A stretch of DNA of 64,000 bases from Zygnema cylindricum (Eukaryota > Streptophyta > Zygnematophyceae > Zygnematales > Zygnemataceae), in contig JBBHKE010003005.1 of assembly GCA_037447655.1 (NCBI GenBank), forward strand, positions 106,701 to 170,700. Reading direction: 5' to 3'. Positions 495 to 27,337 of this stretch are shown piece by piece. The notes below the pieces were generated by a model. The model did not search any database. It was not told the origin of the DNA and saw nothing but the letters and a program-made list of their open reading frames with translations. How positions within the stretch are numbered: the stretch's first letter is position 1; each line of letters begins with the position of its first letter. The translations under genes were made by a program, and so were the position numbers.

Positions 495-566
495 ATTCTT
501 AGGTAGCAACAAGTTGAGTGGAAGCATTCCATCGTCCATCGTTCAACTGACATCCCTCCAATATTT
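495..566 (+). pseudogene. Copy A LRR exon 1 (72 nt)
   Basis: The exon lies between a GTCACAG acceptor and a GTAAGAA donor. It is 72 nt long with phase 2 at both ends and encodes one 24-residue repeat of the NKLSGSIPSSI type. It is open and by itself undamaged. Confidence 0.9.
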
Positions 567-1038
567 GTAAGAAACAAAAGAGAAAACACACATTTTCCAA
601 ATTTTAAATGTCTAACAAAACATTGTAAGACACATTTTGTAAAAATAGTAATAGGAAAAAACAAATATTTTTCTTTAAAAAGGTAATTTATTATGAATTT
701 TGAATAAGCATGGGCGGGCGGGGTTATAAGTAAAAACCAATTATGATCATAATATTTACGCAATAACGGATTGTACTAATTAGTAATTCATAAATACAAA
801 TAAACAAAATAAACCGATAATAAATTACTAATAAATATTGATGATAAATATCAATTAGTAAAAACGGATTTTAACGATTAAAAATTATAGTAACAAGTAG
901 TGCTACTTAATAATTCAACAATAGGCTTTAACTAATCACAAAACATAGATGTTAACCAAAATTCATCAGTAACTCTATGAAGCAAGATTGACAAAAGGAG
1001 TTTGAGAGGATTGTGGATGGGGATGCGAGTTGTCACAG

Positions 1039-1110
1039 AGATTTAGCTGACAACAAGTTGAGCGGAAGCATTCCATCATCCATCGGTCAACTGAAGTCTC
1101 TCCTAAAAAT
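1039..1110 (+). pseudogene. Copy A LRR exon 2 (72 nt)
   Basis: The exon lies between GTCACAG and GTGAGA. It is a 72-nt phase 2-2 exon encoding a repeat that starts LDLADNKLSG. It corresponds to the copy B exon at 19471-19542. Confidence 0.9.
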
Positions 1111-1762
1111 GTGAGAAATTTATAAGATAAAAATAAATTTTACAGCTTTGAAACATCCCTCAAAACATTGTAAAATAGATTTAGAGCAGATAATAAGAAA
1201 AATAAAATAGCTGCCCCCCTAGGTAGGGTTGTGGATAAGGGGTGGACGACGGTCAAGTGAAAGCTGGATATATTCTGGAAAAAATTATGAATAAAAACAA
1301 CTCGTATTGCAATCGATTTTAACTAATGTTGACAAATGATTCAGTTTAACAACATCACTAATTAGTTGCAAAATATAACAATAAATAAATAATAATAGCA
1401 ATAATTAAAATTAATGGGAATAGTCATTATTAAGAATTCGATAACTCTTAGAATTCCGCAGATCCGGAATTTGGCATGTCTTGAAAGGCAACCTTTTTCC
1501 AATTCAAGAAATATAGTAACAACTAACAAAAAGTAAAATCGACCGATAAAAAAGTATTTATAATACTGATGATAAATATAGAACACTAGAAATAAATCAC
1601 AACATTTATAAAAATAGCTAACAATGCTAGGCAATAATCAATTAGTGATATTTATTAAACTGGAAACACGTAAGTTAATAAAAATACATTAATAACAATA
1701 ATAAGCCAGTTTGAGTAACAAGAGTTTGGGAGGTTTGATGGTGGGGATGCGAGGTGTCACAG

Positions 1763-1834
1763 ACAACTATCTCACAACAAGTTGAGTGGAAGCATTCCAT
1801 CGTCCATCGGTCAAATAACATACCTCACTGACTT
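1763..1834 (+). pseudogene. Copy A LRR exon 3 (72 nt)
   Basis: The exon lies between GTCACAG and GTAAGA and encodes a repeat that starts LQLSHNKLSG. In copy B only the 3' tail of the equivalent exon remains, near 20066-20088. Confidence 0.9.
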
Positions 1835-2788
1835 GTAAGAAACATAAGGGAAATGTGCATTTCTACTTACTGGAGACATCCCTTGAAATATCGTACGATA
1901 CATCACCTATATACTAGATAGATAAATAATTTAATTCATAATAATAAAGTTAAAGCTGAAAAATGAAATAATTAAGATTGATAGTTTAAAAATTATGATC
2001 CTCATATGCGGGTGGAACGAAATGTGAACAAGGGTGAGGGCGGGAGTTTAATTAACTGAAATTTGTGTTTCAATTCTTTCTTGATTTTTTACTATAGTGC
2101 ATTAAGATGTTTGCTATTTGCTTTATTAATAATGCTTTAACATATTTTTCTAGTAATTAATGGTAATTTTTATTACTAATGAATGTTGTTGATTTCAAAC
2201 AATATTAACATTAATCTATTTACCATTTTTTTCAAAATCACACCATCTTATCACGCGGGCTCCAATTTCGCTGTACCAAGAGCAAAAAAAGAAATACACA
2301 AAATAATACCTTGTGAAATGGGCAAGTGTTATGTTGAATAACTAATAAAACATAGTTTTTAAGGATTTTCCATAATACGAAAATAGTATTTAAAAAAAAA
2401 ATCTGATATTAGAACATTGTATATAATGCTGTAAAACAAAAAAAATAATGTATTGTATCAGTATGCACAATTAGGCCTTTCTCATTTCTGCAATTGTGAT
2501 TTGCTTGTGGAAAATCAATCTGGTCAAAAAGCTAAACTTATTTATTTACTTTTACCAACAAAACGATAATTTTTTTATTCGTGTACGGCTCATAGGGAAT
2601 CGAAGCAGTTCTTCTGTTAGTAACAACTTCAAATCAATGGCGACACGTGTTTTTAGACCAATAAGCGCAATATTGGATAAAATTAACTAGTACGTGTTGT
2701 ATACATCATATCTTACATTTTTTTGTTGTGAACTTGCAACTGGCGTTGAGTATAAAACCTACGGGTTATGGGGGTGAGGATGTCACAG

Positions 2789-2860
2789 GGGGTTATCTTT
2801 CAACCAATTGAGTGGAAGCATTCCCTCGTCCATCGGTCAATTGAGATTTCTCACCTTTTT
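2789..2860 (+). pseudogene. Copy A LRR exon 4 (72 nt)
   Basis: The exon lies between GTCACAG and GTAAGA and encodes a repeat that starts LGLSFNQLSG. It is the counterpart of 20789-20860 in copy B. Confidence 0.9.
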
Positions 2861-3661
2861 GTAAGAATAATTTCGTTTGAATAGATGTGTTTTCTCGATA
2901 TTTATATACTAAATATTATACGAATAAAGTTTCAATTAAAGTGGGAGGGCCAAAAAAGGTGAGGCTGGTATGAGGGCTGGTAGATTTTTAAGCAATTAAA
3001 CATTAATTTTAAACAATTAAGTGATTTCAATATAGATTACCTTAGTTAACAAGCAAAATTTTAAAAATTTAAACTTGTGGGCTTGTATGTCATTGTAATC
3101 TGAGCAAACTAATATATGCTCCACGTTCGCTTCTTCTAATGAGGTCTTTCCCAACGCCTTATCCCTGGTTTTCCTCCTACCCCCACATTCCTCTTGCACT
3201 CACTTGTTCCTACCTCGCCCTCTCCCTCTCAAAATTTGAAAAAATGAATAACCCACTTAGTAGCTGAAAAAATAATTGTAAATTAAACACATTATGTAAA
3301 GTTATATTCTACTTGTGACACCGCATGTTTGTTAAAAATAAATCTTCACTTAAGTAAAATTTGAAAACGAGAAAAAATCAATTATAGGAGTAACATTATT
3401 GAATTCCATAAACAAAAAAAAGCATTGGAAGTGTGAGGAAGCCATATCAACAACTGCATTATTTTGTATATCTCATGATGGCGCTACAAGAAGGTTAGAG
3501 TGGGCTAGGAATCTATGTTATTTTATTCATTTATAACATCCTCTATATTGGTTTCAAAGTTTCACACGATGAAGGTCTAGTTCTCTTAACCATATGTTTC
3601 CATATCAGTGCCAAATGTTATGCTCTTGAATTTGACAATTTTCTCATATACCTTTGTACAG

Positions 3662-4017
3662 GTCATTGAGTGATAACCTTTTGAGTGGCTTAATTTCGTT
3701 CCCGCTGGATTCTTGGGCGTATATGCCTCAATTTGACTTCAGAAACAACTTTCTTTCCGGTTCTGCAATAGTGTATCAAAATACTTCAAATGTTTGCGAC
3801 GTGGTTATTGAGAACTGCTTCAATGTCAACAACCCATTGCTAAAAAAGTGTTTTTCAAAGGATAAAAGGAAAGCATCCCAGTGTTTGCAGTTTTGTAATG
3901 CTTCTCAACCAATGGGTGCATATGGCGACCACGGTATCTGTCCTGGACTGAATAAGTTTTGCAAATGCAATGCTGACTATTCCACGGGTATAAGTTTCAA
4001 CAACACATGCACTTTGA
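3662..4017 (+). pseudogene. Copy A last LRR plus EGF-like exon
   Basis: This 356-nt exon (phase 2 in, phase 1 out) starts after TGTACAG and ends at GTAAGTC. It encodes a last, degenerate LRR, then about 75 residues rich in Cys that end in an EGF-like segment. One Cys present in copy B (ACGGHG) is Tyr here (AYGDHG), so a disulfide would be lost. The exon is otherwise open. Confidence 0.85.
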
Positions 4018-4729
4018 GTAAGTCTCTCCACTGTCGACACTATCGACGCTAATTGATATGGTGTTTTCTTTTCGCTTATGTGGCCCTTCCCACACCCAAC
4101 TAAAAAAATTTGCGCCACCAATGTAACACTATATTCTAGGTACTTTGAAGTTTTGTTAACATGATGGATGCTTATCAACATGGAGTTTGTTTTTCATAAC
4201 GTCACACTTTCTATATTAATGGCAATGAATATGTAGACGAACCATAAAAAAAGTAGTTTATGTGAAATAATAGCTTTTTTGCCACAACAAGCCTCTAAAA
4301 GCAATCACAAAAAAACAGTGAATTGAAATTCAGTTTGTGCAAAGCGAAGTTAATGTATGGCTCAATATTTCTCGTTATTCTTTATTGCTTGAGTCAATGA
4401 CAACAATTTATTGAGTTTCCATTGCCTAAATTAGTGTTTTAAGATCATGTAGCAACTTTGCCGAAATTGTGTGATATGTCCACAAATATAGTTAATATTA
4501 AAAGAGCTGTAGTTTTTTTCAAATTGTAGAGCCATCATCTTTAGTTGCGTAAGATGTCTCTACATTGTTAAGTGATCGCGTTGTCTTGCAGTAATATTCC
4601 TTTTAAGTTAGTGGCTTATCGTTATCACCGATAACTTCTGAGGGATTGTAGGGACTGCTATGTACAAACACATGTTTTTACGATGCATGATTTAACCTTC
4701 GATTCCTATTTTTCTGATGCATTTTGCAG

Positions 4730-4915
4730 AAACACGTGGTTTGGGATTATTAACACCGCCCCAAACATTGTCCAACAAAACAAATCAATTTTTCCGTTAC
4801 GCGAGTTCATGGTTTTTGTATTCTAACGATAAAAAACCAACATGGATGGTGGCGACCTCATGGAATTTGACTGCTCAACAACCTAACAACAAAGTCGAAG
4901 ATCAATCTAGCTGCA
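4730..4915 (+). pseudogene. Copy A peptidase exon 1 (start of mature enzyme)
   Basis: The exon is 186 nt with phase 1 on both sides. It is open in the frame that joins the EGF-like exon to the catalytic exon and ends in VEDQSSC, the oxyanion-hole Gln region of papain enzymes. It is one nucleotide longer than its copy B equivalent: the run AACAAAACAAA here is AACAAACAAA in copy B. Copy A therefore preserves the consistent reading frame. Confidence 0.85.
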
Positions 4916-5115
4916 GTAAATGCCCAAAACTCATATAATTTTTTTTAATAAATGAAAAAATTTGGAATTTAACTTTTTGGGATTTTCTTGGCAAATGACC
5001 TTCCGTTCATGATTTTTATGGTCATTCGGGACTTATATAGCAAAACCACACTAAGCTAGCAGTTGACAACTTAAAATGGCTAATTTCTTTTTGTAATTGT
5101 TTTTGTGATGTGTAG

Positions 5116-5919
5116 ATACATGCTGGATCATTTCTGCTTTCACTGCCATTGAACATGCTTATTACATTGCAAACAAGGGAACACAACCTCTCCTTGACCT
5201 TCTAGCCGAATAAATGCTTAATTGCTCTAACTTTACCTGCGTTAGAGGAGGTTGGCCGGGCGAAGCTTTTGATTAGTAAATGTTACGATTCATTGAAAGA
5301 ATCGTACGCACCCACAATCGGTTCGATTTCGCGAAAGAAAAACTGTACTTTCTAGAATGAATCGAAAGTACTTTGACGTACGATTTCGAGAAAGTACTAT
5401 GTATGTTTCGCGAAATATATTTGTTGTTTTCGTTTCGCGTCTAGATTTTCGTACGTCTAATATAGTACGATAGTACTTCTAGCTTTGTCTAGTACTTTCG
5501 TTTTGGTTTGTCGTTTTGCTATGTTTCAGCCCTTAGTGAAATTTAGAGTATTCTAGCTTAATCTGCGGACAGGTGGCAGTTTTCTCGAGGCTTCTTGGCG
5601 GCGCACGCTCACACGTGTCACGCCATGGCTGGGATTGTATTTAAGGGATACCATGACTGTGTGTTAATTAATCAATGAGAAATTGGAGGATTATATGGAG
5701 TAATAGAAGAGAAGCAAATTTGTAATTTCGGATATTTAATAATATGAGAAATTTCCGAAATGTTTCTTCAATGTTGATTTAATGTTTTATAATCTGAATG
5801 CTTCTGCTGCTATAAGTGCTTGTAAGTGAGCTCAGAGTTTTTTATCGATCCTTTCAGCAAACACATGTCTTTTATCATCACAAAATTTCGCGAAGGAAAG
5901 TACTTGCAAATTGGTCAAT
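5116..5919 (+). pseudogene. Copy A catalytic-Cys exon, split by an LTR
   Basis: The exon starts after GTGTAG with codons for NTCWIISAFTAIEHAYYIAN, so the active-site Cys (5121-5123) is retained. A TAA interrupts it at 5211-5213 and a TAG at 5274-5276. A solo LTR occupies 5281-5856. Homology to copy B resumes at 5857 and runs to the GTAAGTC donor at 5920. Confidence 0.9.
5281..5856 (+). mobile_element. Putative solo LTR inside copy A
   Basis: This 576-bp segment is absent from the matching exon of copy B. It starts with TG and ends with CA, and is flanked by GTAAA (5276-5280) and GCAAA (5857-5861), a 5-bp target duplication with one mismatch. A TATA-like TGTATTTAAGG lies near 5635. It has no coding content. 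Orientation is a guess from the TATA-like box. A short non-autonomous element is the alternative. Confidence 0.7.
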
Positions 5920-6370
5920 GTAAGTCAATGCTTATGCCTTTTAAATATCCTCATTCGTGTTCTTTCTTCTGTCTTTTTCAATTTTAAAGGTTTCTTTTTA
6001 TGTAGTTTTCCCTCTTTTTCCTAATTTTTTTTAATGCTTAAATGAGAAATTTCGAGCCTATATAATTTATGATAATGGTTCCAAATATCCTCCACGTACT
6101 CCGTGTCTACTCTTTTTTTTCTGTAATGACTTTGAATCTTTTCTGTTTTTTCGCATACCTGGTTCACCCTACTTGCTCACTTTTCTTCAACTTTTAATTA
6201 TGTTCCCTGTCGTTACTTTTTTTAGATTCTTCATGTACTTCTAGGACATTATATTCATGGTCTGATTTTTTCAACTCTTAAATTTTGTACCCTGAGATTT
6301 CTTTTTGAAAATTATTCTTATCACTTTACTGTTTAACCTTTGTGGTAAGATGTTTTTGATGTTTTTGCAG

Positions 6371-6514
6371 ATATTTAACAGAATACAAATTTTATCATAT
6401 CATAGAACTCGAATGAATGGCAGGAGTGGCCTCTTATTGGCACTTCAACAGCAGCCAGCTGTGGTGGCTATCAAGGCCAGCTCTTATGCTTTCAACAATT
6501 ATAATCCTAAATTA
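6371..6514 (+). pseudogene. Copy A peptidase exon 3
   Basis: The exon is 144 nt, phase 0, between TTTTGCAG and GTGAGC. It encodes the papain segment with GLLLALQQQPAVVAI, before the catalytic His. It is open and collinear with 23427-23570 in copy B. Confidence 0.85.
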
Positions 6515-6757
6515 GTGAGCACCTGTACCAAGTTTTAAGTTTTATACAATCTTCAAATGCCGTTTGGAAATATTTCAACGGTGTGAAACCAAATTGAAAT
6601 TGTTGCCACAAACTATTATAAATGTTGTTTGGATCACTAGGCTATCCTCAAGTTTATTATGTCATATTTCATAGGATCATTGTGCGCATTTATACAACTA
6701 ATTTCACATGGTACACAAATCTTTGTTGTAACACGCACGTGTTTGGGATTGGTGTAG

Positions 6758-6977
6758 GGTGTCTTTGATGACGAGATTTGTTTCTCAAACAGGGAAGACA
6801 ATGCGGTGCTAATCGTTTATTACGATTTGACAGCGGAGACTTCATATTAGCTCTTTCAAAATTCATGGGGAGTCAATTGGGGGGATAAAGGATACATGCG
6901 TCTTAAAATATCAAGTGGTTATGGGATTTGCGGAATCAATACCCAACCAGCTATCATAACAATCATGAAGCCCAAAA
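6758..6977 (+). pseudogene. Copy A His/Asn exon, inactivated
   Basis: The 220-nt exon has GT at its 3' donor. The codon aligned with the catalytic His of copy B reads AAT (Asn, 6800-6802). The Gly of the following VGY motif is Tyr. A Trp codon is TAG (6848-6850). The NSWG motif with the catalytic Asn is still present downstream. Confidence 0.9.
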
Positions 6978-7202
6978 GTAAGTTTGATAAAAGACCTATA
7001 TTTTGCGCGAATTTTGTGTGACTCAAAAGATGATATGTAAGAGCAGTTGGTTATCGTCAAAAATGCCAGTTTTTGAATTAAATAAAATATCATAGAATGA
7101 GATTGATATCTTAGAAAGTACCATCACTGGATGAATTTTGGGTGAAGTTAACGTGCAGAAATTTACCCTTTTTTTTTTTTTTTTTCTTCTCGGACATTTC
7201 AA

Positions 7203-7385
7203 ATGGTGACCTGTGCAACGTAAGAAATTTTGCACAGGTACAATATAATGCTACTATTGGTCTTAGAAGCATGAACCGATGTGGCAATGGTTTATGTACT
7301 TCAAACAACAAAACATATTCTTGTAAATGTATGGATCAATTTGTAGCCGTTCACAACACAGACGGAACACAAACTTGCGCTCCAG
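7203..7385 (+). pseudogene. Copy A EGF-like exon with lost acceptor
   Basis: This 183-nt segment matches 24237-24419 of copy B and encodes an EGF-like domain (RCGNGLC ... CKCMDQF ... TCAP). The acceptor that reads TTTCAG in copy B reads TTTCAA here, so normal splicing into it should fail. A 20-nt T run lies just upstream. The donor GTGAG is intact. Confidence 0.8.
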
Positions 7386-8344
7386 GTGAGAAACATTTTA
7401 TATTTTTACTTTGTTATCATGCATGCTGAATTTTATGTGTAACTACTTTTTTTTTTTACATTCTAAGATTTCAATGGGCAAGACTGAATAAACGCCAGAG
7501 TACAGAATGTGTGCGCGCATTGGTGTATACGTCTTGTTTCAAAAGCATCTGTCAAAATGTTTGAAATTCAGCATGTGTTTTGGTGGATTTGAAAACGCAT
7601 ATCCTTTGTTTTGGTTTATTTGGTAATGTAATACCCCAAAATGCACGTTGTTTACCGGAAATGATTGTATTGTTGATATTGGAACACAATCTAAAGGTCG
7701 CGTTAACTCAAGAATAATCCTCCATATCCCATAAAGCTCTTATGCTAGATCAATCACCTTTTAGTTTTTTGGCCGCATGGACTTTTGCATTTTTGCCGGC
7801 GTTTTTATTTGTTCATGTTGCTGCTTTAAACATGTAACATATGAATATGATTTCTATAATCACAGGATGTTAAATAGACCCTCAGAAATCGCATAGTCGA
7901 TTAAAACTGGTAAACGTTTAGCATTCGATTGCATTAGTTAAAGAAACATTTCATTTCCCAATTTTATTGCAAAGGCTAATCGGATGTGGTGACTATAGTT
8001 TTGAATTTATATGTTTATTTTGGACTTTCAAGCATGTTATGGACAACTACGATTTCTATATAACCCATAAAAACACTTGAAATTGGAATATGTAAGTATG
8101 TCTTAAAAAATATAAATTTTGTGTGGAATACCAACATTTGCTAAATCTTTTAGTATCTTTTTTTTAGCATGTTCTAGATGAAATCCACAAACTTTGAGCA
8201 TGGAAAAAGGTGATGGTTCAGGTTTGAACAAAACTAATATTTGTGGATTTCACTGTGAAACTTCGCTGTCGCTGAATCTAAATGATTGACCTTCGCAGTT
8301 TTCTTTTCTATAAATCAAGGTCTGCGAGTTTTTGGTGTAAAATG
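7386..8344. other. Decayed intron of copy A, then unassigned DNA
   Basis: Up to about 7830 the sequence aligns with the copy B intron at 24420-24860. After that the homology stops. No EGF or LysM exon is visible before the copia fragment starts near 8345, so the 3' part of copy A was lost at this junction. Confidence 0.6.
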
Positions 8345-12829: not shown

Positions 12830-13957
12830 GGCCGTACCCTTCATCTTTTTTTCCCACCGACACGAAATTAAAGTCGCGGCAGTCGTGCCGTGTAAAATGG
12901 TCCTACACCACGTCAGGTAACACTTGTCCTTCGTCCGATGAAAATGACCCACCGGAGGTCATGTATCCGATTCGTCCGCGGTCATTTTGCCGAAATTGAT
13001 GAGTCGTCCATTTCATAATTTTTGGTTTTGGTCGGTGGTTAGTACATTATTGTACGATTCACATGTAAATTGTACGTTCCAGCCCTGCCAATAAACATAT
13101 CGTATGTTTCGGCCTGCCAATAAATGCATTGTACGTTTAGATCCTAACAATAATGTACTGTACGTGGCAGCTCTTCAATCAAATGCCTAGTACTGTAGGT
13201 TCCGGTCAATAATTCGTTGTACGGTCCATAACTGAACATAAATTATAAAATTTGATAAGTGATTCCGCAGAAAGCGCACTAAATGATCGCCGTCCAATCG
13301 GCAATCCAACGGTCGCCCTAGCTCAAGGCGCCACGCGTACCGTAAGCGCCAGCTGTCATCGACACGTTGACCTTACTGTCGCCATTAGGTCACGAGGCGG
13401 CGCAAAGCTTTTCGACGACTCTGACGACGCCTCAAATTGCTTCGCAGCTTTGTGCCACACTTCGAATACAAAGAAACAGTTTGCGCCGAGTCGTATCCTT
13501 CATCGTTTCGGAGAACATAACTTCTTGACTCAAAACTGCCACGTGGCCTTTGCCAAGAAAGTTTTGATTTTTTTGTCGTGGCGAGTGTGTAACCATGGCT
13601 GCCACCGGATTGTTATCGACAGTCCTGATCTTGACGTGCCACTTGGCACTCGTAATCGGAACTTACAGTATAACCATGGCAGCTTCTGACAGTAGGTTTT
13701 CCCCTCTTTACCCTTCCTTTTCGCCCTTTTCGGTCTGTTGTCCATGCCTTCACACGTGCGAAGCATGCATCTGATTGGTTCCTCTGCCTTGTCTGTCCGT
13801 ACGGCTGCTGCAGAGGCGGCTCTAGAGGCGGTGAAGGCGGCGATAACGACAAAGAACATTCCCGAAATCAAATGCGGATGGCCTTTCTACTGCGACGATT
13901 CCGGTCGCGTCACCCAACTGTGAGCGACTATCCCTGCGTGCACACTCTGCCGTATCC
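12830..13957. other. No recognised gene; degenerate repeats
   Basis: Open frames at 13252-13689 (+) and 13530-13871 (-) have no recognisable domains and overlap on both strands, so I do not call them genes. Positions 13055-13215 hold degenerate units of roughly 40-50 bp with recurring TGTACGTT and CCAATAA words. Confidence 0.5.
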
Positions 13958-14153: not shown

Positions 14154-14158
14154 GTGCA

Positions 14159-16165: not shown

Positions 16166-16362
16166 AATTTGGATTCGACTCTCTTTTATGCGCTTTGATT
16201 TTTTCCCTTTTTCTTTTTTTCTTCTCTTTCCTTTTAACTTCCCCCCACGGACTCCCCTAACCGCGAAATAAAAAAGGAAGGAGAGGGAGAGTGTGAAGAT
16301 GGAATAGAAAGTTTGGTTTATTGACAAATGTGGGGAGAGGGGTGGGGGGGGGAGGAGTGTAG

Positions 16363-16434
16363 TGAACTATCGGATCAAAGTCGGGAGGGGATCATTGCTC
16401 CGGAGATTGGCAACCTCACACAACTAAGAATCTT
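16363..16434 (+). CDS. Copy B LRR exon 1
   Basis: The 72-nt exon lies between GTGTAG and GTGAGT, phase 2-2. It encodes a repeat ending IAPEIGNLTQLRIL, closer to the standard plant LRR consensus than the later repeats. It is the first exon I can see. Earlier exons, including a signal peptide, would lie upstream of the repeat-rich block. Confidence 0.8.
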
Positions 16435-19400
16435 GTGAGTGTAGATTGAGAGAGGAAATGCATCTCACATGAAAAGTTCTTATGATACGAATAATGTTGC
16501 TTGTGTCGGTGACCAATTTCTAAAAGAGATGGAAAATGTTAACAATAATTGTATCCCTTTGTAGGTGGTAACGATTGAGGAGGTATGCAAAATGGTGGAG
16601 GGACTGGGGGTGAAAGGGAAAAGGTTTACACTAAGAAATTAAATGAGAGTAAATGATGGTTACTTGAGGATTTTGAAACATTGGAAAATTGAATACAAAA
16701 TTATTGTTGGTTAGATTGGAAATATATGGTGTTTTTCAAGAAATCCTTTTTGATAAGCAAGAATTCCGTATTCAAGGGGTGATTCAATCTTTGAAGGGGT
16801 GCATTGGTGGCTTTGAGGCGATCACCACTTCAATAAATAACCACTATAAAAAATAATATATTGACAGAAAAGCAATGTATTCTAAAGGTAAATTTATATT
16901 TTGGTTTATTTATTTATAGTTGTTTGATTATGGAAAGTAGTGGGATAAAACGAGGGTGATTTTGGATAAGTAGAAAAAAATCATTTTGAAAATCTTACTT
17001 TTTGATTTGTGCAAGTACAGTATTGGCTAAGTACATGTACATTGTGTTTACCAAGAATGTTATTATTATTAAAATCCAATAATTTTTATAGTAAAGACAT
17101 TCGGAGGTTTGGGATGGGCATGCGAGGTGTCACAGATATCTAGGTTATAACAAGTTGAGTGGAAGCATTCCGTCGTCCATCGGTCGATTAACATCCCTCG
17201 AATACTTGTAAGTCAAGCTATCGAAATATGATCTACCAAGTGAATTTGTTACTAAGCTTGATACCTTAAATAGTATTTCCTATAGTAAACGGTCGAGGAA
17301 GCATTTTAAGCAAGTGAAAGCATAATATTATAAGTCTAATAAATAATATCCTCAAGGAATATTCTAAACAAAAATATACTAAAATTATTTTCGATAATTA
17401 TTTGTAATAATTCCAATTAATAAGAATGGAAGGAAATGATAAAAATAATTAATAGCTAATATTATAAAAATAATTATCAACTATCAGTAAACATAAATAA
17501 TAGTTTATCTAAATGATCAAAAAAGTTAAAAATGGTGATTGTAGATATAATTTTTTATATTTAAAAAAAAATTAATAATAACAGAGGTTAATAATTCTTG
17601 TTTATAACAATTAATTTTATAATGGTAAATTAAAGGCTAACAGTCTATTATAAAAATAATGCATACTAATGATAAATAATACATACTAATGATAAATAAT
17701 ACTTATTACTAACAATACGAGTTCATGAATAACAATATATAGTAATGGTAACAAAATATTAATAATGATAGGTCTCAATGAAGGCAGTGGGAGGTTTGTG
17801 GGTGCGGTTTCCCGTTGTCACAGATGGTTGGATTTAACAACTTATGATTAATTTATAACAACTACTTACATTCAATCAAGCGTGAAATAATTATTTAGCG
17901 AAAATATAACTAATAACAAACTTCATAATAGATAACAAATTGTTTTACTTAAGTTTGGGAGGTTTCGGGGTGGGGATGCGAGGTGTCACAGAGATATAGC
18001 TAGCAATCAGTTGAGTGGAGGCATTCCATCGTCCATCGGTCAACTAAAATCCCTCCAAACATTGTAAGAAATATATAAGAAACAAATTTTACAGCTTTGA
18101 AACATCCGTCGAAACATTGTAAGACATTTTTTGTAAAGGATAATAATCCAAAAAATAAGAACGATCCTTTAAAAAATATTGTCTATTTTATGGGGTAGAC
18201 CGTGAGAAAGGGTGGTAATAAGCACGTGAAAAGTAGTTATGATCATAGCATATTATTATTAAAAAATGAAACAAATAATGTACATCTAATTTTCATTAAT
18301 ATATACAAATGAAGAAAATATTTTATAATATTAACAATAATTTAAATTGTAAAAAAAAATAAAATAACGGTGATAAGTAAATTTGATTGAAAAGAATCAG
18401 TAATAATTATTGATTGTAGTAATAACTATTTATTAATAAATAGTTATTATTAGTAACTTATTGTCATGAATATAAATAAGTAATATAAGCTGATAAAAAT
18501 TAAGTAATTAATAGTGATGATGAATATGTAATAGTAAAAATTAACTACAATTGAAAATAACACTAACTGTCAACCTTGATCAATAATCAATGATACACGA
18601 TTAATAATTAGTAATTGACAAATCATAAATAATAAATTATAATTCATAACCAGCCATTTAGCAAAAAAGATTAATGTTAAATAATCTTACAAAATGGATA
18701 GTAAAACTAACAATATTCAACATGTTTGACTAAAAGGGGTTTGGGAGGTTTGTGGGTGGGGATGCGAGGTGTCACAGATATTTATCTCAAAACAAGTTGA
18801 ATGGAAGTATTCCATCGTCCATCGGTCAAATGACATCTCTCAAATACTTGTAAGAAATTAATGAGAAATACACATTTTCCAAATTTGAAACGTCCCACTA
18901 AACATTGTAAGACATATTTTGCAATAAATAGTAATAGAAAAAAACAAAACTGTTCCCTTCAACAATATTAATTATTATAAATTGTGGATGGGCAGGGGCG
19001 GGAGAAAAAAGAAACTAGTTATGATCATTTCGATTTAATATTAAAAATAAATTGACAAAAACAACAGATACAACAACTAATTATATTGATGTTGACAAAT
19101 GATTTAAAATAATTAGATAAATTAACATTAAACTATAAATAATAACAAAGAATAAATGATAATGGTAATTTTTAGAATCAATAAAATCAATCAGTAGTAA
19201 AAACCGATCATAATAATTAGTAATTTATGAACATAAATAAATAAAAATAAACTGATAATAAAATACTAATAAATACTGAAGATAAATATTTATTACTAAA
19301 AACTGATTTTAACAATAAAAAATAACTAGTGATGCTAATTAATAAGTTAAAAGTTGATAATAACTAATCATAAAACATAGATGATAGCAAAAATTCATTA

Positions 19401-22400
19401 GTAACTTTAATAAGCCTGTTTGAGTAAAAGGAGTTTAGAGGATTGCGGATGGGGATGGGGGTTTCCACAGATATTTGTGGAGCAACCAGTTGAGTGGAAG
19501 CATTCCATCGTCCATCGGTCAAATGACATCCCTCAATACCTTGTAATAAATATAGGAGAACACATTTTACAAATTAGTAACACCCCGCAAAAAATTGCTG
19601 GACAAATTTTGTAGTAGATAATAATAAAAAAAAACCATAATTGATTTATTAACAATAATTTGTTTATCCCCTAGATTAGGGTTGTGGAGGGGGGGATGGA
19701 CAGCAGTCAAGTAAAAACTGGTTATGATCATAACAAGTCTATATAATTTAAAAATGATATAACAACTATCATTACAATTATTTTGATAATTTAAAAATAT
19801 CAATAACTAATTACAAATAAAAACAAAAAAAATGATAATAGCAATAAGTAAAATTAATAGAAATAATCAGTAATAATAATTGATGATTATTAGAACTCCG
19901 CAAAATCAAGATTTGGCATGTCTTGAAGGGCAATCTCGATCATAATAATTATTAAGTTATGAACATAAATAAATAAAAATAAAATGATAAAAAAATACTA
20001 ATAAATATTGACGATTAATATTTATTAGTAAAAACTAATTTTAACAATAAAAAATAACAAAATAATCTGACATTCCTCCGATACTTGTAAGAAGTATAAA
20101 AAAAAATAAAAAAAAACATCCCTTGAAAACCTGTAAAAAACATCACATAACAAAAAAAAAATTAAAAAAACAAAAAAGAAAACTTTTTAGCTAATAAATA
20201 AATAAAGAGAGGGGGGGGGGGGGGGGGTTGAAGAAATGAAATGGGGGATTGAGGTAATGAAATTTCCGTTCGAACAAGTATTGTTTTTTTTAATATAATT
20301 GCATTATAATGGATGTTAACTGTGTATTGTTGAATACCTAAAAATATGAGAAAACCCGTTTTTTATGATTTTTTAATCATAGAAAAGTAATAAAAAAAAA
20401 ACAGCTTATGTTACAACTGAGTATAAATAATTTTGAGAAGTTAAAAAATTTAACAAAATCAGTATGAGGAATTAGGCAATTTTGATTTCCTTGTAGTTTT
20501 CTAGTGGAAAATCAATTTGGTAAAAAAACTAAGATTGATTGATTCAATTGGACCAAAAAGTTGATAATTTATATTCCTTTTAAGGTTGAGGGAGGATAGG
20601 AGTAGCTTTTGTGTTAGTAACAACTGAAATTAAATGAAAAAAACAAGTGTTTTTACACACACAAGCCCAATGTTGGATAAAATAGACGTTAATGCGTTGA
20701 AAAAATATCATACTTTACATTTGTTTATTGTGAACTTGCATCTCGATTTAGTAAAAAGTACCTAAGAATGGGGGTGAGGATGTCACAGAATTTTATCTGG
20801 CAACCGGCTGATTGGAAGCATTCCGCCGTCCATCGGTCAATTGAGATTTCTCCTGACATTGTAAGAAGTATTTCGTTCGAATAGATGTAGTTTCTCGATA
20901 TTTAGAACCTGAATATTAAATGATTAAAGTTTCAATCAAGATTCCGTAAGGTTATAATTTACTGGTGACACCACATGCTTGGGGAAAAAAGTTACAAAAA
21001 AATATTTCCACTCAAGTAAAATTTGAAAACGTGAGAAAGTCAGCTATAAGAGTAATAATAATGAAGTGCATAAATAAAAAAGTACTGGAAATGTGTGGAA
21101 AGCATAAAAACAACTGCATTATTATCTACTTCTCAAAGATGGTGCTACAAGAAGGTTCAGAGTAGGCTAGGAGTCTATGTTATTTTTTTCTTTTATAAAA
21201 TGTTGTATGTCGGTTCCAAAGTTTCACACCATGAAGATTTAGTTCTCGTAACCATATGTTTCCATATCAGTTCCAAAATTTCACCACACGGAGTTTTGTC
21301 AAATGTAGTGTAGCTTGAATCTAATAATTTTCTCATTATGCCTTTGTGCAGGAATTTGGGTGATAATCTTTTGAGTAGCTTGATTGCGTTCCCGTTGGAT
21401 TCTTGGGCATCTATGCCTTATTTTAACTTTAGTAACAACTTTATTTCCGGTTCTACAGTAGTGTATCAAGATACCCCAAATGTTTGCACCGCAATCAGTG
21501 GGAACTGCTTCAATGTCGATGACCCCTTGCTGAAAAATTGTTCTCCAAAGGTGCAAAGGAACCAATCCCTATGTTTGCAGTTCTGTGATGCTTCTCAGTC
21601 AATGGGTGCGTGTGGGGGCCACGGCACCTGTCCTGGACTGAATAAATCTTGCATATGCGATGCCGACTATTCCACGGATATAAATTTCAACAACACATGC
21701 ACTTTCAGTAAGTCTCTACAACACTATCCACGCTAATTGATATGTTGTTTTTGCTTATATGGCCCTTCTCACACCCAATTTAAAAAAAAATCGTAACAAA
21801 TGTAACAGCATGTTTTGGATATAGTGAAGTTTCGTCAACATGATATATACTAATCAATATGGAATTTGTTTTTTATAACGTCGTATTTTATAAATTTATG
21901 GCAATATATGTGTAGACGAGCCAGAAAAAACTATTTTATGTGTTATATTAGCTTCCTTGTCATAACAAGCCTCTCAACGCAATCACAACTAGTGATTTGA
22001 AACTCAACGTGTGTGAGGCCAAATTAATGTATGGCTCAATAATGCCTTTTTCTTACAAACGCTTGAGTTAGTGATAGAATTTCATCGAGTTGCGTTGCCT
22101 CAACCATAAATAATTGCTTTGCTGAAATTGTGTGATGTCCCAAATTTATGCGACAGTTAAATTTTTTTAATTGTTTGTTGTTTTCAATGTGTAGAGCCAT
22201 TATCTTTAGTTGCCTAAGGTTTATGCGTTGTTAAGCGATCACATTGTCATGAACTAAATTCCTTCCAAGTTAGTGGCTCATCGTAACCACAAAGAAGTTT
22301 TGAGGTATTGTCGAGGCAACGATGTGTAAACATGCTTTTTGCATGAATTAAAATTCGATTCTATTTCTTCTGATGAATTGTGCAGAATCACGTGGTTTGG

Positions 22401-25400
22401 GATTATTAACACCGCCTCAAACATTGTCCAACAAACAAATCAATTTTTCCGTTACGCAAGTTCTGGATATTTGTATTCTAAGGATAAGAAACCAACATGG
22501 CTGGTGGCGACCTCATGGAATTGGACTGCTCAACTACCTAGCAGCAAAGTCAAGGATCAATCTAGCTGCAGTAAATACCCAAAACTCCGTGAATTTAATT
22601 TACTTCAAAGAAAAAATGTGAAATTTATTCTTTTCTGGTTTTTCTCTGCAAATGACCTTGCATTCATCTGTTTTATGTCTATTAGCACACTAATGTTGCA
22701 AAACAACACTGCTATTGTTTGACAATTCGGAATGGTTAATTTCTTTTGTAACTTTTTTTGCGATGTGTAGATACATGCTGGATCATTTCTGCTTTCACTG
22801 CTATTGAACATGCTTATTACATTGCAAACGCGGGAACACAACCTCTCCCTGAATTTCCAGCGGGGCAAATGCTTAATTGCTCAAAAATTAACTGTGCTAG
22901 AGGAGGTTGGCCGAACGAAGCTTTTGATTACGCAGCAAACACAGGTCTTTTAACATCAAAAAGTTTCACGAATGACAGTACCTGCAAATTGGTCAATGTA
23001 AGTCAATGTTTATGTTTTCCAAATTTCCTCTTTCATGTTCTTTCTCCTGTCTCCTTCAATTTTGAGGGTTTCCTTGTATGTATTTTTCTCTCGCTTTCCT
23101 TTTTTTTCTTCAGTGTTTAAATGAGATATCTTGCGACCACATGATTTATGTCTATGCTTCTAAACATCTTCCACGTACTCCGTGTCTACTCTCTTTTTTC
23201 TTTATTGCTCTTTATGATCTTTCACATAATTGGTTTTCCCTATCTGCTCACTTTTCTTCAGCGTTTAATTTCTGTGCCCTGTAATTACTTTTTTTTTTAT
23301 TCTTCAAGTAATTCTAAAGCATTTAATCCATTTTTTCAACGCTTAAATTAAGTACCCTGTGATTACTTTTTGAAAATTCTTCGCATCCTTATACAACATA
23401 ACATTCGTGGTCTGACGATTTTGCAGAAATTAAACGGAATACAAATTTTATCGTATGATAGGATTCGAATGAATGGCTGGAGTGGCCTCTTACTGGCACT
23501 TCAACAGCAGCCATCTGTGGTGGCTATCGAGGCCAGCTCCTATGCTTTCGTCAATTACAACCCTGAATTAGTGAGCACTTGTACCAAGTTTTAAGTTTTT
23601 TACAATCTACCGTTTGGGAAATTCTAACGATGGGAAACCAACTTGAAATCGTTGCTGCAAAATATATTAGCTGCGGTTAGAGTTATTGGGCTATCCTTAG
23701 ATGTTCAATGTATCAAATTTTATGGGACTGTTGTGTGCAATTTCTAGTAGCTAATTTCACATGGTACCCAATTACTGGTTCTAACACGCATGTGATTGGG
23801 ATTGGTGCAGGGTGTCTTTGATGACGAGACTTGCTTCTCAAATGGGGTGGACCATGCGGTGTTAGTCGTTGGTTATGATTTGACAGCTGAGACGCCATAT
23901 TGGCTCATTCAAAATTCATGGGGAACCACTTGGGGTGATAAAGGATACATCCGTCGTAAAATATCAAGTGGTTATGGGATTTGCGGAATCAATACTCAAC
24001 CAGCTATCATACCAATAATAATGCCCAAAGGCAAGTTCGGTAAAAGACGTATATTCTGCTCAAATTTTTTGTGACTCAAAAAGGATATGTAGGAGCAGCT
24101 GGCTATCTTCATAGATGCTAGTTTGTGAATTAGATGAATTATCATAATGTGGGATCGATATATACCGTGAGTTAGTGAAGTCAACGTGCTGATCTGTACG
24201 CTTTTTTTAATATTTTTTCCTTTTGGGACATTTCAGCTGGTGATCTCTGCAACGTCAAAATTTTTGCACAAATACAACAGAATGCTTCTATTGGTCCTGG
24301 AAGCATGAACCCATGTGGCAATGGTTTATGTACTTCAAACAGCAAATCATATACCTGTAAATGTATGGATCAGTTTGTAGCTGTGAAAAACACGGACGGA
24401 ACACAAACTTGCGCTCCAGGTGAGAAACATTTTGTATTTTTAGACTTTGTTTTCAAGCATGTTGAAATTCTTTGTTTTGTAACTAAAATGAAATGTTTTT
24501 ACATTCTAAGATTTTTTTCAATGGGCAAGACTGATTAAAAACCATATAGTACGGAATGTGTGTGCACATTGGTGTATATGTCCAGTTTTAAAAGCATCGG
24601 CTAAAATGTTTGAAATTCTGCATATATTTTGGTGGATTTGGAAACGCATTTGTTCTTCTTTTTTGGTTTTTTTGGTTATACAGTACCGCACAATGCACGT
24701 TGTTTATTGGAAATGATTGCACTGTTGATAGTGGAACACAATCTAAAGGTCACGCTAACTCATGAACAATCCTCCATATTCCATATAGCTCTTTTTCCAG
24801 ATCGATCACCCTTTAGTTTTTTGGTGGCGTGGACTTGCTTTGTTTAAAACGTAACTTGTCAATTGTATTCAAGTGGTTCAAGATTTTAAATGGCCTCGAC
24901 TCTTTTTTTGTTTTGTCTAGCCTCTCCATGTACCTTCACATCGCGCAATCCTTGTGGAATGGGAACTTGCGTGGACTCTAAGGACAAACCGGGAACATAC
25001 GCCTGCGTTTGTTTGATTGGATATGCCGCCGATGATTCAGACGGTTCTCTCTCATGTGTTCCAGGTGGGTTCTGTTTACATTCGTCTTATTGCACGAATT
25101 TGCTTAGAAATTTGAATCAAATACGAGTGTGATCATTTACCTATTCATTCATCTCTAAGTAGAGAACCAAATTCGATCAAAATTTGTACAGATCCAACCC
25201 ATGAGGGCACAAAGTTCCAGTGCAGATACTTTAAAAGTCTTGCGACATTTATGATTTCGAAACATTATATGAATTAAGTTTAATCGGGGGTTCAACACCA
25301 ATGTACATTTCACAAACTCTGTTCCTTCAATATATCACATAATTTATTGAGCTAAGGAAATCCGTAAGCAAAGTCATATATACATACATCCATGTCGATA

Positions 25401-27337
25401 CACGTTGTTAAAAATGATATTGAAGAAACATTTCATATGTTTAATCAATGCCACATGTAAAACCATAACGTAAATTTGTAGCAATGCTAACGTGAAACAC
25501 TTTCTTGGTAATTAAAAGGGTATTGTAAGTTTTTGTTGATGTCCACCAATGTTTTCACTTCAACCTTGTTTTTCTCTTCATGGTTTATTTTTTTTCCAGC
25601 CGCCGCTATGGTAGGGGCAAAGGAATATGTTGTGCCAGTTGGTGGATCTATTTCTTGCTCGACTATCTTCACCACATATGGCATCTCACAACAAAGCTTT
25701 CTAGGACAAAACAAGGTTTTATTTCTATCACTTTTAATGCCCTGTTGTTTGGCGTATTTGCAGTCAAACCCTTGGTTTTGCTCTTCAATGAATGGAGCAA
25801 TCATCATACTGTTTTGGAAAGGAAGGGTGTGATGGCAAGGGCCCTTCTTTTGCATACATGTATGGTATAATGTTGGCCTAATACCATTAGGGACATGCAT
25901 TTGGGTTGAGCTCCAGAACTTGAATTGCAGCCAGCTTCTCCCAAAAGGAGCCAAAGTTAATGTAACCAACTCCATAGAATGTTCCCTAATTTATTCAGCG
26001 GAAGAGGTAAGCTTACGTTCTTGTGAACCATTCAAGTTTTTTTTATTCAATTTGATTTACACGGGCTTGGATATTTCGAGCTTTTATGCAACCCTTTTTT
26101 TCTTGCTAGAGTGATTTGAGCTATTGGCCCCATTATTATGGTCTTCTAGAATAGCAATTCCATTTGAGTACTTAATTACTGTAAATAGCTGATCAATGCA
26201 AAATCGGGCTTTCCAGGGCGATACATGTGATTCCATAAAGTTTACATTACAACTCAAGCATAACTTCGACCTCGATGGCCCAGATTCTCCAAATCCGAGC
26301 TTGAACTGCTCAAATTTGAAACCATACCAACAGGTGGTTTTCGAATACCTTAACCCTACATTTCAAAATATGGATAGATGAATGGACATAAATAGAAAGT
26401 GCGATGTAATTTCCCTTAATTTCGGACGAGTTTGTATACTCTTGTGTTAACATCGTCATGTCGCTTAGACTTCCTAAATTACTAAACTTGTTGCTGTATG
26501 CGTTTGGAAATAAATCCATTTTTGTAGATATGCATTTCAAAGGGAGATGTACCATTTCGTGGACCCTGTACCCGTCCATACAGCATTAAGCGGGGGGAAA
26601 CGTGCCCAACTATTATTCGTGAATACATGGATGGAAACGCGACAAAATTTTATTCCCTAAACCCTGGTGTGTACTGTGGTCGTATCCTGGAATATTCTCA
26701 CAATGACAATACCTTTCAGCAAGAGGTGAGAATAATTCCAATACATTAACATTCATCCGACTTTTTAATGTCCAATCCATAACAAATATCCGTTCTTTCA
26801 ACACGTACAAATTTCATTAATTGCCTTTTGAATACTGGCTGACACACGGTTTTCCTCATTCATACTTGCGATTTGTATGTGTATTAGATACTATCGTTCG
26901 TGATTAGGCATGACAGATTAGTATTATGGATGCAAGAATAATGTGGTCTTGGCAATCTCTTTATCTCTTAATATCTTTAAATATTTAGGCCTTTGTGGTT
27001 GCCATCTATCTTTAAAATAGGGTTTGTAATTTCTACTACAGAATAATGTTCACAATGGGTGTTGTATCTCTCGTGCCTCCAGGTTTGCTTAGACAGTGTA
27101 GACCTTGGAGGTGCAATAGCAGGATGCAGCGGGACAGCGGTCACATTGGCAACCTCACACAATTGTGCCATTTTGAGCACCAATTACTTCAAAGATGATC
27201 CTAAGACAAAAATAAAACCTGCATCCTTTCTCACTTTAAATAAGTTCGCATGTCAAAACTCTGCACTTAACACTATTCGTGCAAAGGCCAAAAGAGCCAG
27301 TGTAACTCCCAAAATTTGTACTCCAAAACTGAGATGA
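16363..27337 (+). CDS. Copy B: LRR - EGF - papain-like cysteine peptidase - EGF x2 - LysM gene (5' incomplete)
   Basis: Exons visible: 16363-16434, 17136-17207, 17992-18063, 18778-18849, 19471-19542, 20789-20860, 21352-21707, 22386-22570, 22771-22997, 23427-23570, 23811-24030, 24237-24419, 24921-25064, 25600-25715, 25917-26006, 26217-26333, 26528-26725 and 27083-27337 (stop TGA). Together they encode about 890 residues. Introns are GT-AG except one GC-AG (24031). Exon phases agree throughout except at 22386-22570, which is 185 nt against 186 in copy A and so shifts the frame. The protein would be secreted or on the cell surface, with LRRs for recognition, a C1A protease, disulfide-rich EGF modules and a LysM tail for chitin- or peptidoglycan-like glycans. 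No start codon, signal peptide or promoter was located. Either this is a recently broken gene or the deletion is a sequence error. Function is inferred from domains only. Confidence 0.85.
17136..17207 (+). CDS. Copy B LRR exon 2
   Basis: The 72-nt exon lies between GTCACAG and GTAAGT and encodes LYLGYNKLSGSIPSSI and the rest of one repeat. Confidence 0.9.
17824..17860 (+). pseudogene. Copy B LRR exon relic
   Basis: A conserved G-rich intron end and GTCACAG are followed by only a few LRR-like codons (about TGGTTGGATTTAACAACTT) before homology is lost. There is no donor. Skipping it leaves the frame intact because LRR exons are 72 nt. Confidence 0.5.
17992..18063 (+). CDS. Copy B LRR exon 3
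   Basis: The 72-nt exon lies between GTCACAG and GTAAGA. The repeat starts LDIASNQLSGGIPSSI. Confidence 0.9.
18778..18849 (+). CDS. Copy B LRR exon 4
   Basis: The 72-nt exon lies between GTCACAG and GTAAGA. The repeat starts LYLSQNKLNGSIPSSI. It is the counterpart of copy A 495-566. Confidence 0.9.
19471..19542 (+). CDS. Copy B LRR exon 5
   Basis: The 72-nt exon lies between TTCCACAG and a weaker donor GTAATA. The repeat starts LYLWSNQLSGSIPSSI. Confidence 0.85.
20066..20088 (+). pseudogene. Copy B relic of a deleted LRR exon
   Basis: Only the exon tail CTGACATTCCTCCGATACTT followed by GTAAGAAG remains. The equivalent in copy A (1763-1834) is complete, so copy B lost one repeat by an internal deletion. 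Confidence 0.6.
20789..20860 (+). CDS. Copy B LRR exon 6
   Basis: The 72-nt exon lies between GTCACAG and GTAAGA. The repeat starts LILSGNRLIGSIPPSI. Confidence 0.9.
21352..21707 (+). CDS. Copy B last LRR and EGF-like exon
   Basis: The exon is 356 nt between TTGTGCAG and GTAAGTC. A closing LRR (LNLGDNLLSSLIAFPLDSW) leads into about 80 Cys-rich residues. These end in an EGF-like pattern CGGHGTC ... CICDADYS ... C. This links the LRR domain to the peptidase. Confidence 0.85.
22386..22570 (+). CDS. Copy B peptidase exon 1, with 1-nt deletion
   Basis: The exon is 185 nt. Its 3' two thirds encode the start of the mature peptidase, ending SKVKDQSSC, with the oxyanion-hole Gln at 22558-22560, in frame with the next exon. 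Its 5' third is in frame with the previous exon. The two frames differ because one A is missing in the AACAAACAAAT stretch near 22430-22440 relative to copy A. No alternative acceptor in the exon restores the frame. Confidence 0.8.
22771..22997 (+). CDS. Copy B catalytic Cys exon
   Basis: The exon is 227 nt between GTGTAG and GTAAGTC. It starts with NTCWIISAFTAIEHAYYIAN, matching the papain CWAFS motif. The nucleophile Cys codon is 22776-22778. The LNCS ... CARGGWPNEAFDY segment corresponds to the papain DC ... GCNGG region. Confidence 0.9.
23427..23570 (+). CDS. Copy B peptidase exon 3
   Basis: The exon is 144 nt, phase 0-0, between TTTTGCAG and GTGAGC. It contains GLLLALQQQPSVVAIEASSY, the conserved QPVSVAI-type strand of C1A peptidases. 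Confidence 0.85.
23811..24030 (+). CDS. Copy B catalytic His and Asn exon
   Basis: The exon is 220 nt. VDHAVLVVGYD contains the catalytic His (23853-23855) and IQNSWGTTWGDKGYI the catalytic Asn (23913-23915). The domain ends with GICGINTQPAIIP. The donor is GCAAGT after AAG, where copy A has GTAAGT. Confidence 0.9.
24237..24419 (+). CDS. Copy B EGF-like domain 1 after the peptidase
   Basis: The exon is 183 nt, phase 1-1, between TTTCAG and GTGAG. Six Cys in an EGF-like layout: NPCGNGLC, CKC, TCAP. Confidence 0.85.
24921..25064 (+). CDS. Copy B EGF-like domain 2
   Basis: The exon is 144 nt, phase 1-1, between TTGTCTAG and GTGGGT. It has the pattern PCTFTSRNPCGMGTC, YACVC, LSCVP. It is absent from copy A. 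Confidence 0.85.
25600..25715 (+). CDS. Copy B LysM 1, first part
   Basis: After TTTTCCAG the exon encodes KEYVVPVGGSISCSTIF, then TYGISQQSFLGQNK, a LysM-like pattern. The donor GTTTTATT is weak, so the 3' boundary is the least certain in the gene. Confidence 0.6.
25917..26006 (+). CDS. Copy B LysM 1 end and start of LysM 2
   Basis: The exon is 90 nt, phase 0-0, between CTCCAG and GTAAGC. NLNCSQLLPKGAKVNV closes LysM 1. ECSLIYSAEE opens LysM 2. Confidence 0.65.
26217..26333 (+). CDS. Copy B LysM 2
   Basis: The exon is 117 nt, phase 0-0. GDTCDSIK near the start and NPSLNCSNLKPYQQ at the end are classical LysM signatures (GDTC..I, NP.LNC..L..GQ). Confidence 0.85.
26528..26725 (+). CDS. Copy B LysM 3
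   Basis: The exon is 198 nt, phase 0-0, between TTTGTAG and GTGAGA. It closes LysM 2 with ICI and then encodes YSIKRGETCPTIIREYM, then FYSLNPGVYC, a clear LysM. Confidence 0.85.
27083..27337 (+). CDS. Copy B last exon: end of LysM 3 and a probable LysM 4
   Basis: The exon is 255 nt, phase 0, and ends in TGA. VCLD closes LysM 3. HNCAILSTNYF, then FLTLNKFACQN and VTPKICTP look like a degenerate fourth LysM. The C-terminus is basic. Confidence 0.8.
   Translation, partial: VCLDSVDLGGAIAGCSGTAVTLATSHNCAILSTNYFKDDPKTKIKPASFLTLNKFACQNSALNTIRAKAKRASVTPKICTPKLR

What the first reader, a model, noticed from the sequence alone, without database searches (positions are those of the whole stretch)
16363..27337. 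Chimeric gene: LRRs, papain-like cysteine peptidase, EGF-like domains and LysM motifs in one protein
Consistent splice phases join LRR exons to a C1A peptidase with CWIISA, VDHAVLVVGY and NSWG motifs, then two EGF-like exons and three or four LysM-like motifs. LRR and LysM are both recognition modules in plants, the first often for peptides and the second for chitin- or peptidoglycan-like glycans. A secreted protease carrying both would be a soluble sensor-effector or a cell-wall-anchored protease. I know LRR kinases, LysM kinases and papain-like defence proteases, but no family with this order.
Basis: partly seen in the sequence, partly recalled or inferred. Interest (0 to 1): 0.93.

Follow-up and report, generated by a model that had tools for sequence, protein, structure and literature searches.

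The report
Algal protease fused to recognition domains
This plant-like genome carries a large family of genes, one of them in this window, that join a receptor-type leucine-rich repeat, a papain-type protease and sugar-binding LysM motifs in one apparently secreted protein, which looks like a targeted defence or cell-surface protease.

Summary
A 20-exon model (13595-27337, starting upstream of the stated interval) gives a signal-like N-terminus, LRRs, a Cys-rich LRR cap, a papain-like C1A domain, two EGF-like exons and LysM motifs. Phases agree at each junction; one base is slipped inside exon 10, so this copy is recently damaged or misassembled. The join is real: C1505 repeats the order from LRR to LysM, 767/881 residues identical. 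Genome-wide, 85 of 142 C1A loci have the LRR-cap exon upstream and/or LysM downstream on the same strand within 8 kb, 31 both, none on the wrong side. The usual inhibitory propeptide (I29) was found at three places, none with a detected LRR cap or LysM. Three of ten distant loci have Ser for the catalytic Cys. C1A+LysM is published for non-vascular plants or algae (PMC6362431); LRR+C1A was not found in the papers searched. Best reading: soluble, secreted, recognition-directed proteases in a birth-and-death family. No transcripts, organism name or cross-species protein search were available.

The parts
13595..13691 (+). Exon 1: start codon and hydrophobic signal-like N-terminus (MAATGLLSTVLILTCHLALVIG...)
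   Evidence: GT donor, phase 1; highest hydrophobicity of the protein; no paralogue support
13814..13919 (+). Exon 2: LRR N-terminal cap-like segment (C..GWPFYC)
   Evidence: AG/GT ends, phase 1 to 2, runs in frame into the first LRR exon; assigned by eye, no Pfam hit, no paralogue support
16363..16434 (+). Exon 3: LRR, 72 nt
   Evidence: partly aligned at C1505
17136..17207 (+). Exon 4: LRR, 72 nt
   Evidence: reciprocal intron-flank match to C1505
17992..18063 (+). Exon 5: LRR, 72 nt
18778..18849 (+). Exon 6: LRR, 72 nt
19471..19542 (+). Exon 7: LRR, 72 nt
20789..20860 (+). Exon 8: LRR, 72 nt
21352..21707 (+).
   Evidence: 356 nt in window, C1505, C1662 and upstream copy; dN/dS 0.38 vs C1505; Cys count
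22386..22570 (+). Exon 10: linker and start of the papain-like domain (SWNW...KVKDQSSC); the reading frame slips by one base inside this exon
22771..22997 (+). Exon 11: catalytic Cys exon (CNTCWIISA)
23427..23570 (+). Exon 12: C1A domain, middle
23811..24030 (+). Exon 13: catalytic His (VDHAVLVVGY) and Asn (QNSWG); GC-AG intron follows
24237..24419 (+). Exon 14: EGF-like
   Evidence: Pfam EGF-type hits below cut-off; dN/dS of exons 14-15 0.13
24921..25064 (+). Exon 15: EGF-like
   Evidence: below cut-off
25600..25715 (+). Exon 16: LysM-like motif 1, first part
   Evidence: motif by eye
25911..26006 (+). Exon 17: LysM-like motif 1, second part (weak acceptor)
   Evidence: same exon in C1505
26217..26333 (+). 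Exon 18: LysM-like motif 2 (GDTCDSI)
   Evidence: motif by eye
26528..26725 (+). Exon 19: LysM motif 3 (YSIKRGETCPTI)
   Evidence: Pfam LysM above cut-off (C1505)
27083..27337 (+). Exon 20: C-terminal Cys-containing segment and stop codon
   Evidence: matched at many loci
495..7784 (+). Degenerate upstream copy of the same gene (LRR exons, CAP exon 3662-4017, C1A exons, first EGF exon); two in-frame stops in the aligned part, 579-nt insertion about 5276-5854, LysM part not found

Best explanation
The window holds one copy, out of frame in one exon, of a large multigene family of a plant-type eukaryote. The gene encodes a soluble, apparently secreted protein: signal-like N-terminus, LRR N-cap-like part, plant-type LRRs, Cys-rich cap, papain-like C1A domain with its catalytic residues, two EGF-like spacers and LysM motifs. 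SHOWN from sequence: order and phases, expansion, dN/dS below 1 outside the LRR repeats between close copies, no recognisable I29 propeptide in the proteins scanned, variation concentrated on the exposed LRR strand, Cys-to-Ser in some distant copies, and different lesions in the close copies examined. INFERRED: the LRR face binds a protein or glycan target, LysM docks the protein to GlcNAc-type polymers of a microbial surface or of the cell's own wall or mucilage, and the peptidase cuts what is brought to it: a recognition-directed extracellular protease, most likely for defence against microbes. Birth and death of copies, a gene-conversion-like tract and Ser-type copies fit an arms race.
For: Pfam domains; phase-consistent model; C1505: 767/881 identical, no frame slip, one stop in the last exon, 16 of 18 aligned exons with exactly the window's length (the first is only partly aligned, exon 10 is one base longer). 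C2493 and C1321 show LRR-CAP-C1A-EGF-LysM at about 40% identity (210/504 and 208/517 over C1A to LysM). 142 merged C1A loci: 56 with CAP upstream, 60 with LysM downstream, 31 both, 85 either; 0 wrong side, opposite strand 0 and 1, chance 0.24 and 0.14. dN/dS window vs C1505: CAP 0.38, C1A exons 11-13 0.26, EGF 0.13, LysM 0.45, C-terminus 0.78. I29 at 3 places only. Exposed LRR positions pN 0.449, pS 0.351; rest 0.071, 0.196 (8 repeat pairs). No strongly hydrophobic stretch after the N-terminus.
Against: No transcript or peptide data. The window copy, the upstream copy, C1505, C1662 and C1052 (3-kb piece) each show lesions of different kinds (frame slip; stops and insertion; stop in last exon; lost splice acceptor; slips and stops), so expression of this locus is uncertain. 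Function is inferred from domain types; glycan binding, LRR ligand and proteolysis are untested. EGF calls are below Pfam cut-off and only one LysM motif passes, narrowly. Exons 1-2 have no paralogue support. At seven of ten distant loci no LRR-cap was found within about 10 kb upstream, so part of the family may lack the LRR. 57 of 142 C1A loci show neither neighbour in the capped lists. Diversification could reflect mating or self-recognition.
Confidence: 0.5

Rival explanations
1. Separate neighbouring genes (LRR receptor-like, protease, LysM protein) duplicated together as a block, so the fusion is only apparent.
For: No transcript was available; distances of 1.6-7.7 kb between parts would allow neighbours. 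The CAP-to-C1A junction is not cleanly resolved by my aligner in the distant copies.
Against: Split codons match at the junctions; junction introns are short (CAP to exon 10 678 nt, exon 13 to 14 206 nt, exon 15 to 16 535 nt; coordinates); same exon structure at C1505; C1A-EGF, EGF-EGF and EGF-LysM junctions split a codon at the same place in C2493, C1321 and C139 at about 40% identity.
Confidence: 0.05
2. Gamete or mating recognition: a polymorphic secreted protease family that processes partner-cell coat or mucilage proteins in sexual reproduction.
For: Paralogue-specific LRR faces, likely secretion, lesions showing turnover; reproductive proteins often evolve this way (general knowledge).
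Against: No expression data; LysM is better known for chitin or peptidoglycan (general knowledge); 56 to 85 loci is many for mating.
Confidence: 0.2
3. Housekeeping wall or mucilage remodelling: LysM and LRR dock the protease to the cell's own extracellular matrix.
For: Other LRR-CAP genes in this genome carry proline-rich, extensin-like tails (C456, C837); low dN/dS of EGF and C1A parts.
Against: Does not easily explain the number of loci, the lesions, Cys-to-Ser copies or variation on the exposed LRR strand.
Confidence: 0.2
4. A dead family: most copies are pseudogenes carried by a repeat-rich genome, with no present function.
For: Lesions in window, upstream, C1505, C1662 and C1052 copies; copia-type elements nearby.
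Against: dN/dS 0.28-0.35 overall outside LRR repeats; 142 of 150 listed CAP matches have no inner stop; C1380, C1662 and C1505 pieces are open from exon 10 to 14; C2493 and C1321 show no stop or slip in the aligned part (the aligner is lenient).
Confidence: 0.08

Closest known systems
C1A peptidase + LysM proteins (Van Holle and Van Damme 2019, PMC6362431; section 12 part 1 and search passages read)
   Same: C1A domain associated with LysM domains in one protein; said not to be retained in vascular plants
   Different: The species with this pair are not named in what I read; no LRR or EGF part is described with it and no expansion is mentioned there
Plant papain-like cysteine proteases (FBSB, ficin, papain and others in the PDB)
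   Same: C1A domain with Gln, Cys, His and Asn; best PDB match FBSB (6yce) at 1.6e-30
   Different: Those have an I29 propeptide and no LRR or LysM (general knowledge); here no I29 is recognised
Plant LRR receptor-like proteins (general knowledge)
   Same: Signal-like N-terminus, N-cap-like part, LxxLxLxxNxLSGxIP repeats on 72-nt phase-2 exons, Cys-rich cap
   Different: No transmembrane-like stretch; a protease and LysM follow the LRR
Tomato Cf-2 (LRR-RLP) guarding the secreted papain-like protease RCR3 (recalled, from no call)
   Same: An extracellular LRR working with a papain-like protease that is a pathogen target
   Different: There two separate proteins; here one polypeptide, with LysM added
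LRR plus proline-rich proteins of the same genome (C456, C837)
   Same: Same kind of LRR plus Cys-rich cap module
   Different: Proline-rich linker and a second LRR instead of the protease

Membership tests
Peptidase family C1A (papain) | Peptidase_C1 profile above cut-off | tested here: met
   140.5 bits, cut-off 20.7, 1.1e-40
Peptidase family C1A (papain) | Catalytic Gln, Cys, His, Asn | tested here: met
   Present in the window copy. Catalytic Cys in 16 of 17 further exons fetched; among ten distant loci 7 Cys, 3 Ser; Gln and His in 10 of 10, Asn in 9 of 10, the miss (C1245) lying where its last exon did not align
Peptidase family C1A (papain) | I29 inhibitory propeptide | tested here: not met
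   No I29 in Pfam scans; 43 residues between CAP exon and mature-like start; three I29 places in the genome, near C1A loci C1970, C547 and C1311, none with a detected CAP or LysM
Plant LRR receptor-like protein | Plant-type extracellular LRRs | tested here: met
   LRR_1 80.7 bits, cut-off 20.6; six 72-nt exons
Plant LRR receptor-like protein | Membrane anchor | tested here: not met
   No 19-residue window of 1.6 or more after the N-terminus (hydropathy only, no dedicated predictor)
LysM protein | LysM profile above cut-off | tested here: met
   21.8-22.8 bits, cut-off 20.9, one motif; the call counts no separate stretch for it; 25.3 at C1505 and 28.0 at C1321
LysM protein | Binds chitin- or peptidoglycan-type glycans | not testable with these tools
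   needs protein
EGF-like | EGF profile above cut-off | tested here: inconclusive
   17.5-19.6 bits, cut-off 21.5; Cys pattern by eye

The most novel reading that the evidence does not exclude
An extracellular integrated guard or decoy: the LRR and the papain-like protease that in flowering plants act as separate receptor and guarded target (Cf-2 and RCR3, recalled) are here fused in one secreted protein, with LysM as a third, glycan-reading part. Protease domains, including Cys-to-Ser copies, would serve partly as bait for pathogen protease inhibitors, and at least 56 loci with the LRR cap, with LRR faces that differ between copies, would be a repertoire of soluble sensors in an alga related to land plants.
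Probability: 0.12. Interest if true: 0.93.

Novelty: new variant of a known kind. Interest (0 to 1): 0.75.

Why it matters
If expressed, it is a large family, not described in the papers searched here, of soluble proteins that join the two main plant recognition modules, LRR and LysM, to a protease without a recognisable built-in inhibitor. It would show that algae related to land plants use a repertoire of recognition-directed extracellular proteases, and it makes testable whether LRR-protease partnerships of plant immunity have fused counterparts.

Tried and rejected
(f) Viral contigs: 4 pattern matches, none a relative. Rfam and tRNA: none in the window. NCBIfam with the C1A part: none.

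Led nowhere: protein database switched off, so cross-species distribution is untested; the LRR genome search stayed unanswered in eight tries. Organism not identified: plant-type LRRs and a 352.8-Mb genome suggest a streptophyte alga; Zygnematophyceae (Closterium or Zygnema) is a guess. Genome lists show only about the best 150 rows, so counts are lower bounds: of the 57 C1A loci with neither neighbour, six lie in stretches fetched and all six have EGF or LysM exons downstream (C1245, C139, C1983 twice, C2201, C2493). My spliced aligner can hide stops behind invented introns; 'no stop, no slip' is lenient. Structure prediction was not run; the only fold was of the 579-nt insertion.
Full report
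WHAT IS THERE. Reading splice sites by hand and checking in a script, I find 20 exons from 13595 to 27337 on the + strand, with GT-AG introns (one GC-AG) and matching phases at the junctions. Exon 1 gives a hydrophobic N-terminus; no other 19-residue window of the protein reaches 1.6 on the hydropathy scale. Exon 2 looks like an LRR N-cap (by eye). These two exons rest on the window alone: the C1505 alignment begins at residue 77. Six 72-nt exons each carry one LRR. Exon 9 (356 nt, 'CAP') carries the last LRR, a cap and a Cys-rich EGF-like stretch. Exons 10-13 are papain-like, 14-15 EGF-like, 16-19 LysM-like, 20 a C-terminal segment. Pfam supports LRR_1 (80.7 bits), Peptidase_C1 (140.5) and one LysM (21.8-22.8, cut-off 20.9); EGF stays below cut-off; I29 is absent. 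The nearest solved structures are FBSB and ficins, with the catalytic residues aligned.

ONE LESION IN THIS COPY. Inside exon 10 the frame slips by one base: exons 1-9 read in one frame and the papain-like half in another. Paralogues read through this place in one frame, so it is a recent lesion or an assembly error; I cannot tell which. The copy at about 495-7784 is older and degenerate, with two in-frame stops in the aligned part, a 579-nt insertion and no LysM part found. C1505 has one stop in its last exon. C1662 has lost the splice acceptor before exon 10. A piece of C1052 has slips and stops.

ONE GENE, NOT NEIGHBOURS. C1505 aligns over 18 exons, 767 of 881 residues identical; 16 of the 18 have exactly the window's length, exon 10 is one base longer, the first is only partly aligned. 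It has two LRR exons more than the window copy, so repeat number varies. C1662 gives 733 of 854, with a 144-base gap and a poorly aligned LRR part. Between window and C1505, dN/dS is 0.35 over 679 codons: CAP 0.38, C1A exons 11-13 0.26, EGF 0.13, LysM 0.45, C-terminus 0.78; LRR exons and exons 1, 2 and 10 were not in this count. Against C1662 it is 0.28, with LysM exons 16-19 identical. Of ten more distant loci fetched, 10 have EGF exons after C1A, 7 have LysM by tblastn, 3 have CAP and 2 have LRR hits; two more (both at C209) have LysM by Pfam. C2493 and C1321 show the full order, 210/504 and 208/517 identical over C1A to LysM. In these and C139 the C1A-EGF, EGF-EGF and EGF-LysM junctions split a codon at the same place; the CAP-C1A junction is not cleanly resolved there by my aligner.

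GENOME-WIDE. Searches gave 150 matches (303 candidates) for Peptidase_C1, 171 (479) for this C1A, 164 (460) for this LysM part and 150 (418) for CAP; the listed rows, about 150 each, were used. Merged, the C1A hits make 142 loci, conventional ones included. Within 8 kb on the same strand, 56 have CAP upstream, 47 LysM downstream, 31 both, 72 either; no CAP lies downstream and no LysM upstream; on the opposite strand 0 and 1; chance expectation is 0.24 and 0.14. Adding Pfam LysM hits (24 loci, 13 downstream of C1A, 0 upstream, 11 elsewhere) gives 60 with LysM and 85 with either. 57 have neither, including all three loci near an I29 hit (C1970, C547, C1311); six others of the 57 were fetched and do have EGF or LysM exons. 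CAP also occurs with no C1A found within 12 kb at 89 of 150 CAP loci, and 32 of 85 LysM loci have no C1A upstream; two CAP proteins continue with a proline-rich stretch and a second LRR. So an LRR-cap module used elsewhere in this genome was probably joined to a C1A-EGF-LysM gene; loci without a detected CAP (both C209, both C1983, C2201, C2338; also C1245) may show the older state. That order of events is inference.

NO USUAL PROPEPTIDE. I29 was found at three places: C1970 and C547, next to C1A exons, and C1311, about 4 kb from one. The window gene has 43 residues between CAP and the mature-like start, too few for a usual I29 region. The loci without LRR also show no I29 hit, so its loss may be older than the LRR. 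I29 split by introns could be missed; the first look had only three candidates.

ACTIVE AND INACTIVE COPIES. Of 17 further catalytic-Cys exons fetched, 16 keep Cys; C39:121900 does not align there. Of ten distant loci, 7 keep Cys; C2493, C1321 and C139 have Ser, with Gln, His and Asn kept. They may be pseudo-enzymes, decoys or slow serine-type enzymes.

LRR FACE. In 18 LRR exons of the window (both copies), C1505 and C1662, variation sits at the exposed strand positions (entropy 2.35-2.93 bits at positions 1, 3, 4, 22, 23; 0-1.41 elsewhere). For eight repeat pairs matched by intron flanks, pN and pS are 0.449 and 0.351 at those positions, 0.071 and 0.196 elsewhere. This suggests relaxed or diversifying change on the binding face; the sample is small, and three pairs involve the degenerate copy.

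WHAT IS KNOWN. PMC11096116, PMC10407611, PMC11289646 and PMC10834447 were searched for terms only; the passages shown held no LRR+C1A protein. Seven full-text searches listed no paper that, by title and abstract start, describes LRR+C1A+LysM; most subscription papers are not held.

JUDGEMENT. Architecture and family: about 0.95 sure as one gene. Function: about 0.5 for a secreted recognition-directed protease, mainly defence; mating and wall remodelling remain open.

Noticed in passing
window 25200-27000 vs C1662: Nine 200-nt blocks of exons and introns are practically identical to C1662 while blocks on either side are mostly 76-95% alike: a gene-conversion tract or assembly effect.
   Followed up: partly
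window 30000-64000: Copia-type retroelement fragments on both strands, including a 929-aa open frame at 54861-57647 (-) (identified by eye).
   Followed up: no
window 5276-5854: 579-nt insertion inside the catalytic-Cys exon of the upstream degenerate copy; possibly a small mobile element.
   Followed up: no
window 12450-12510 and 13960-16000: A long C-run/G-run inverted repeat, a CACTGAATCCCG-type tandem repeat and a strongly G/A-rich stretch (GC skew 0.74); the latter two lie inside intron 2 of the gene model.
   Followed up: no
C456:68366-70591 (-), C837: LRR plus Cys-rich cap followed by a proline-rich linker and a second LRR: the same cap module with another tail.
   Followed up: partly
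C2259:80238-81945: LysM exons of a further family copy on the same contig, upstream of the window: the family is partly clustered.
   Followed up: no
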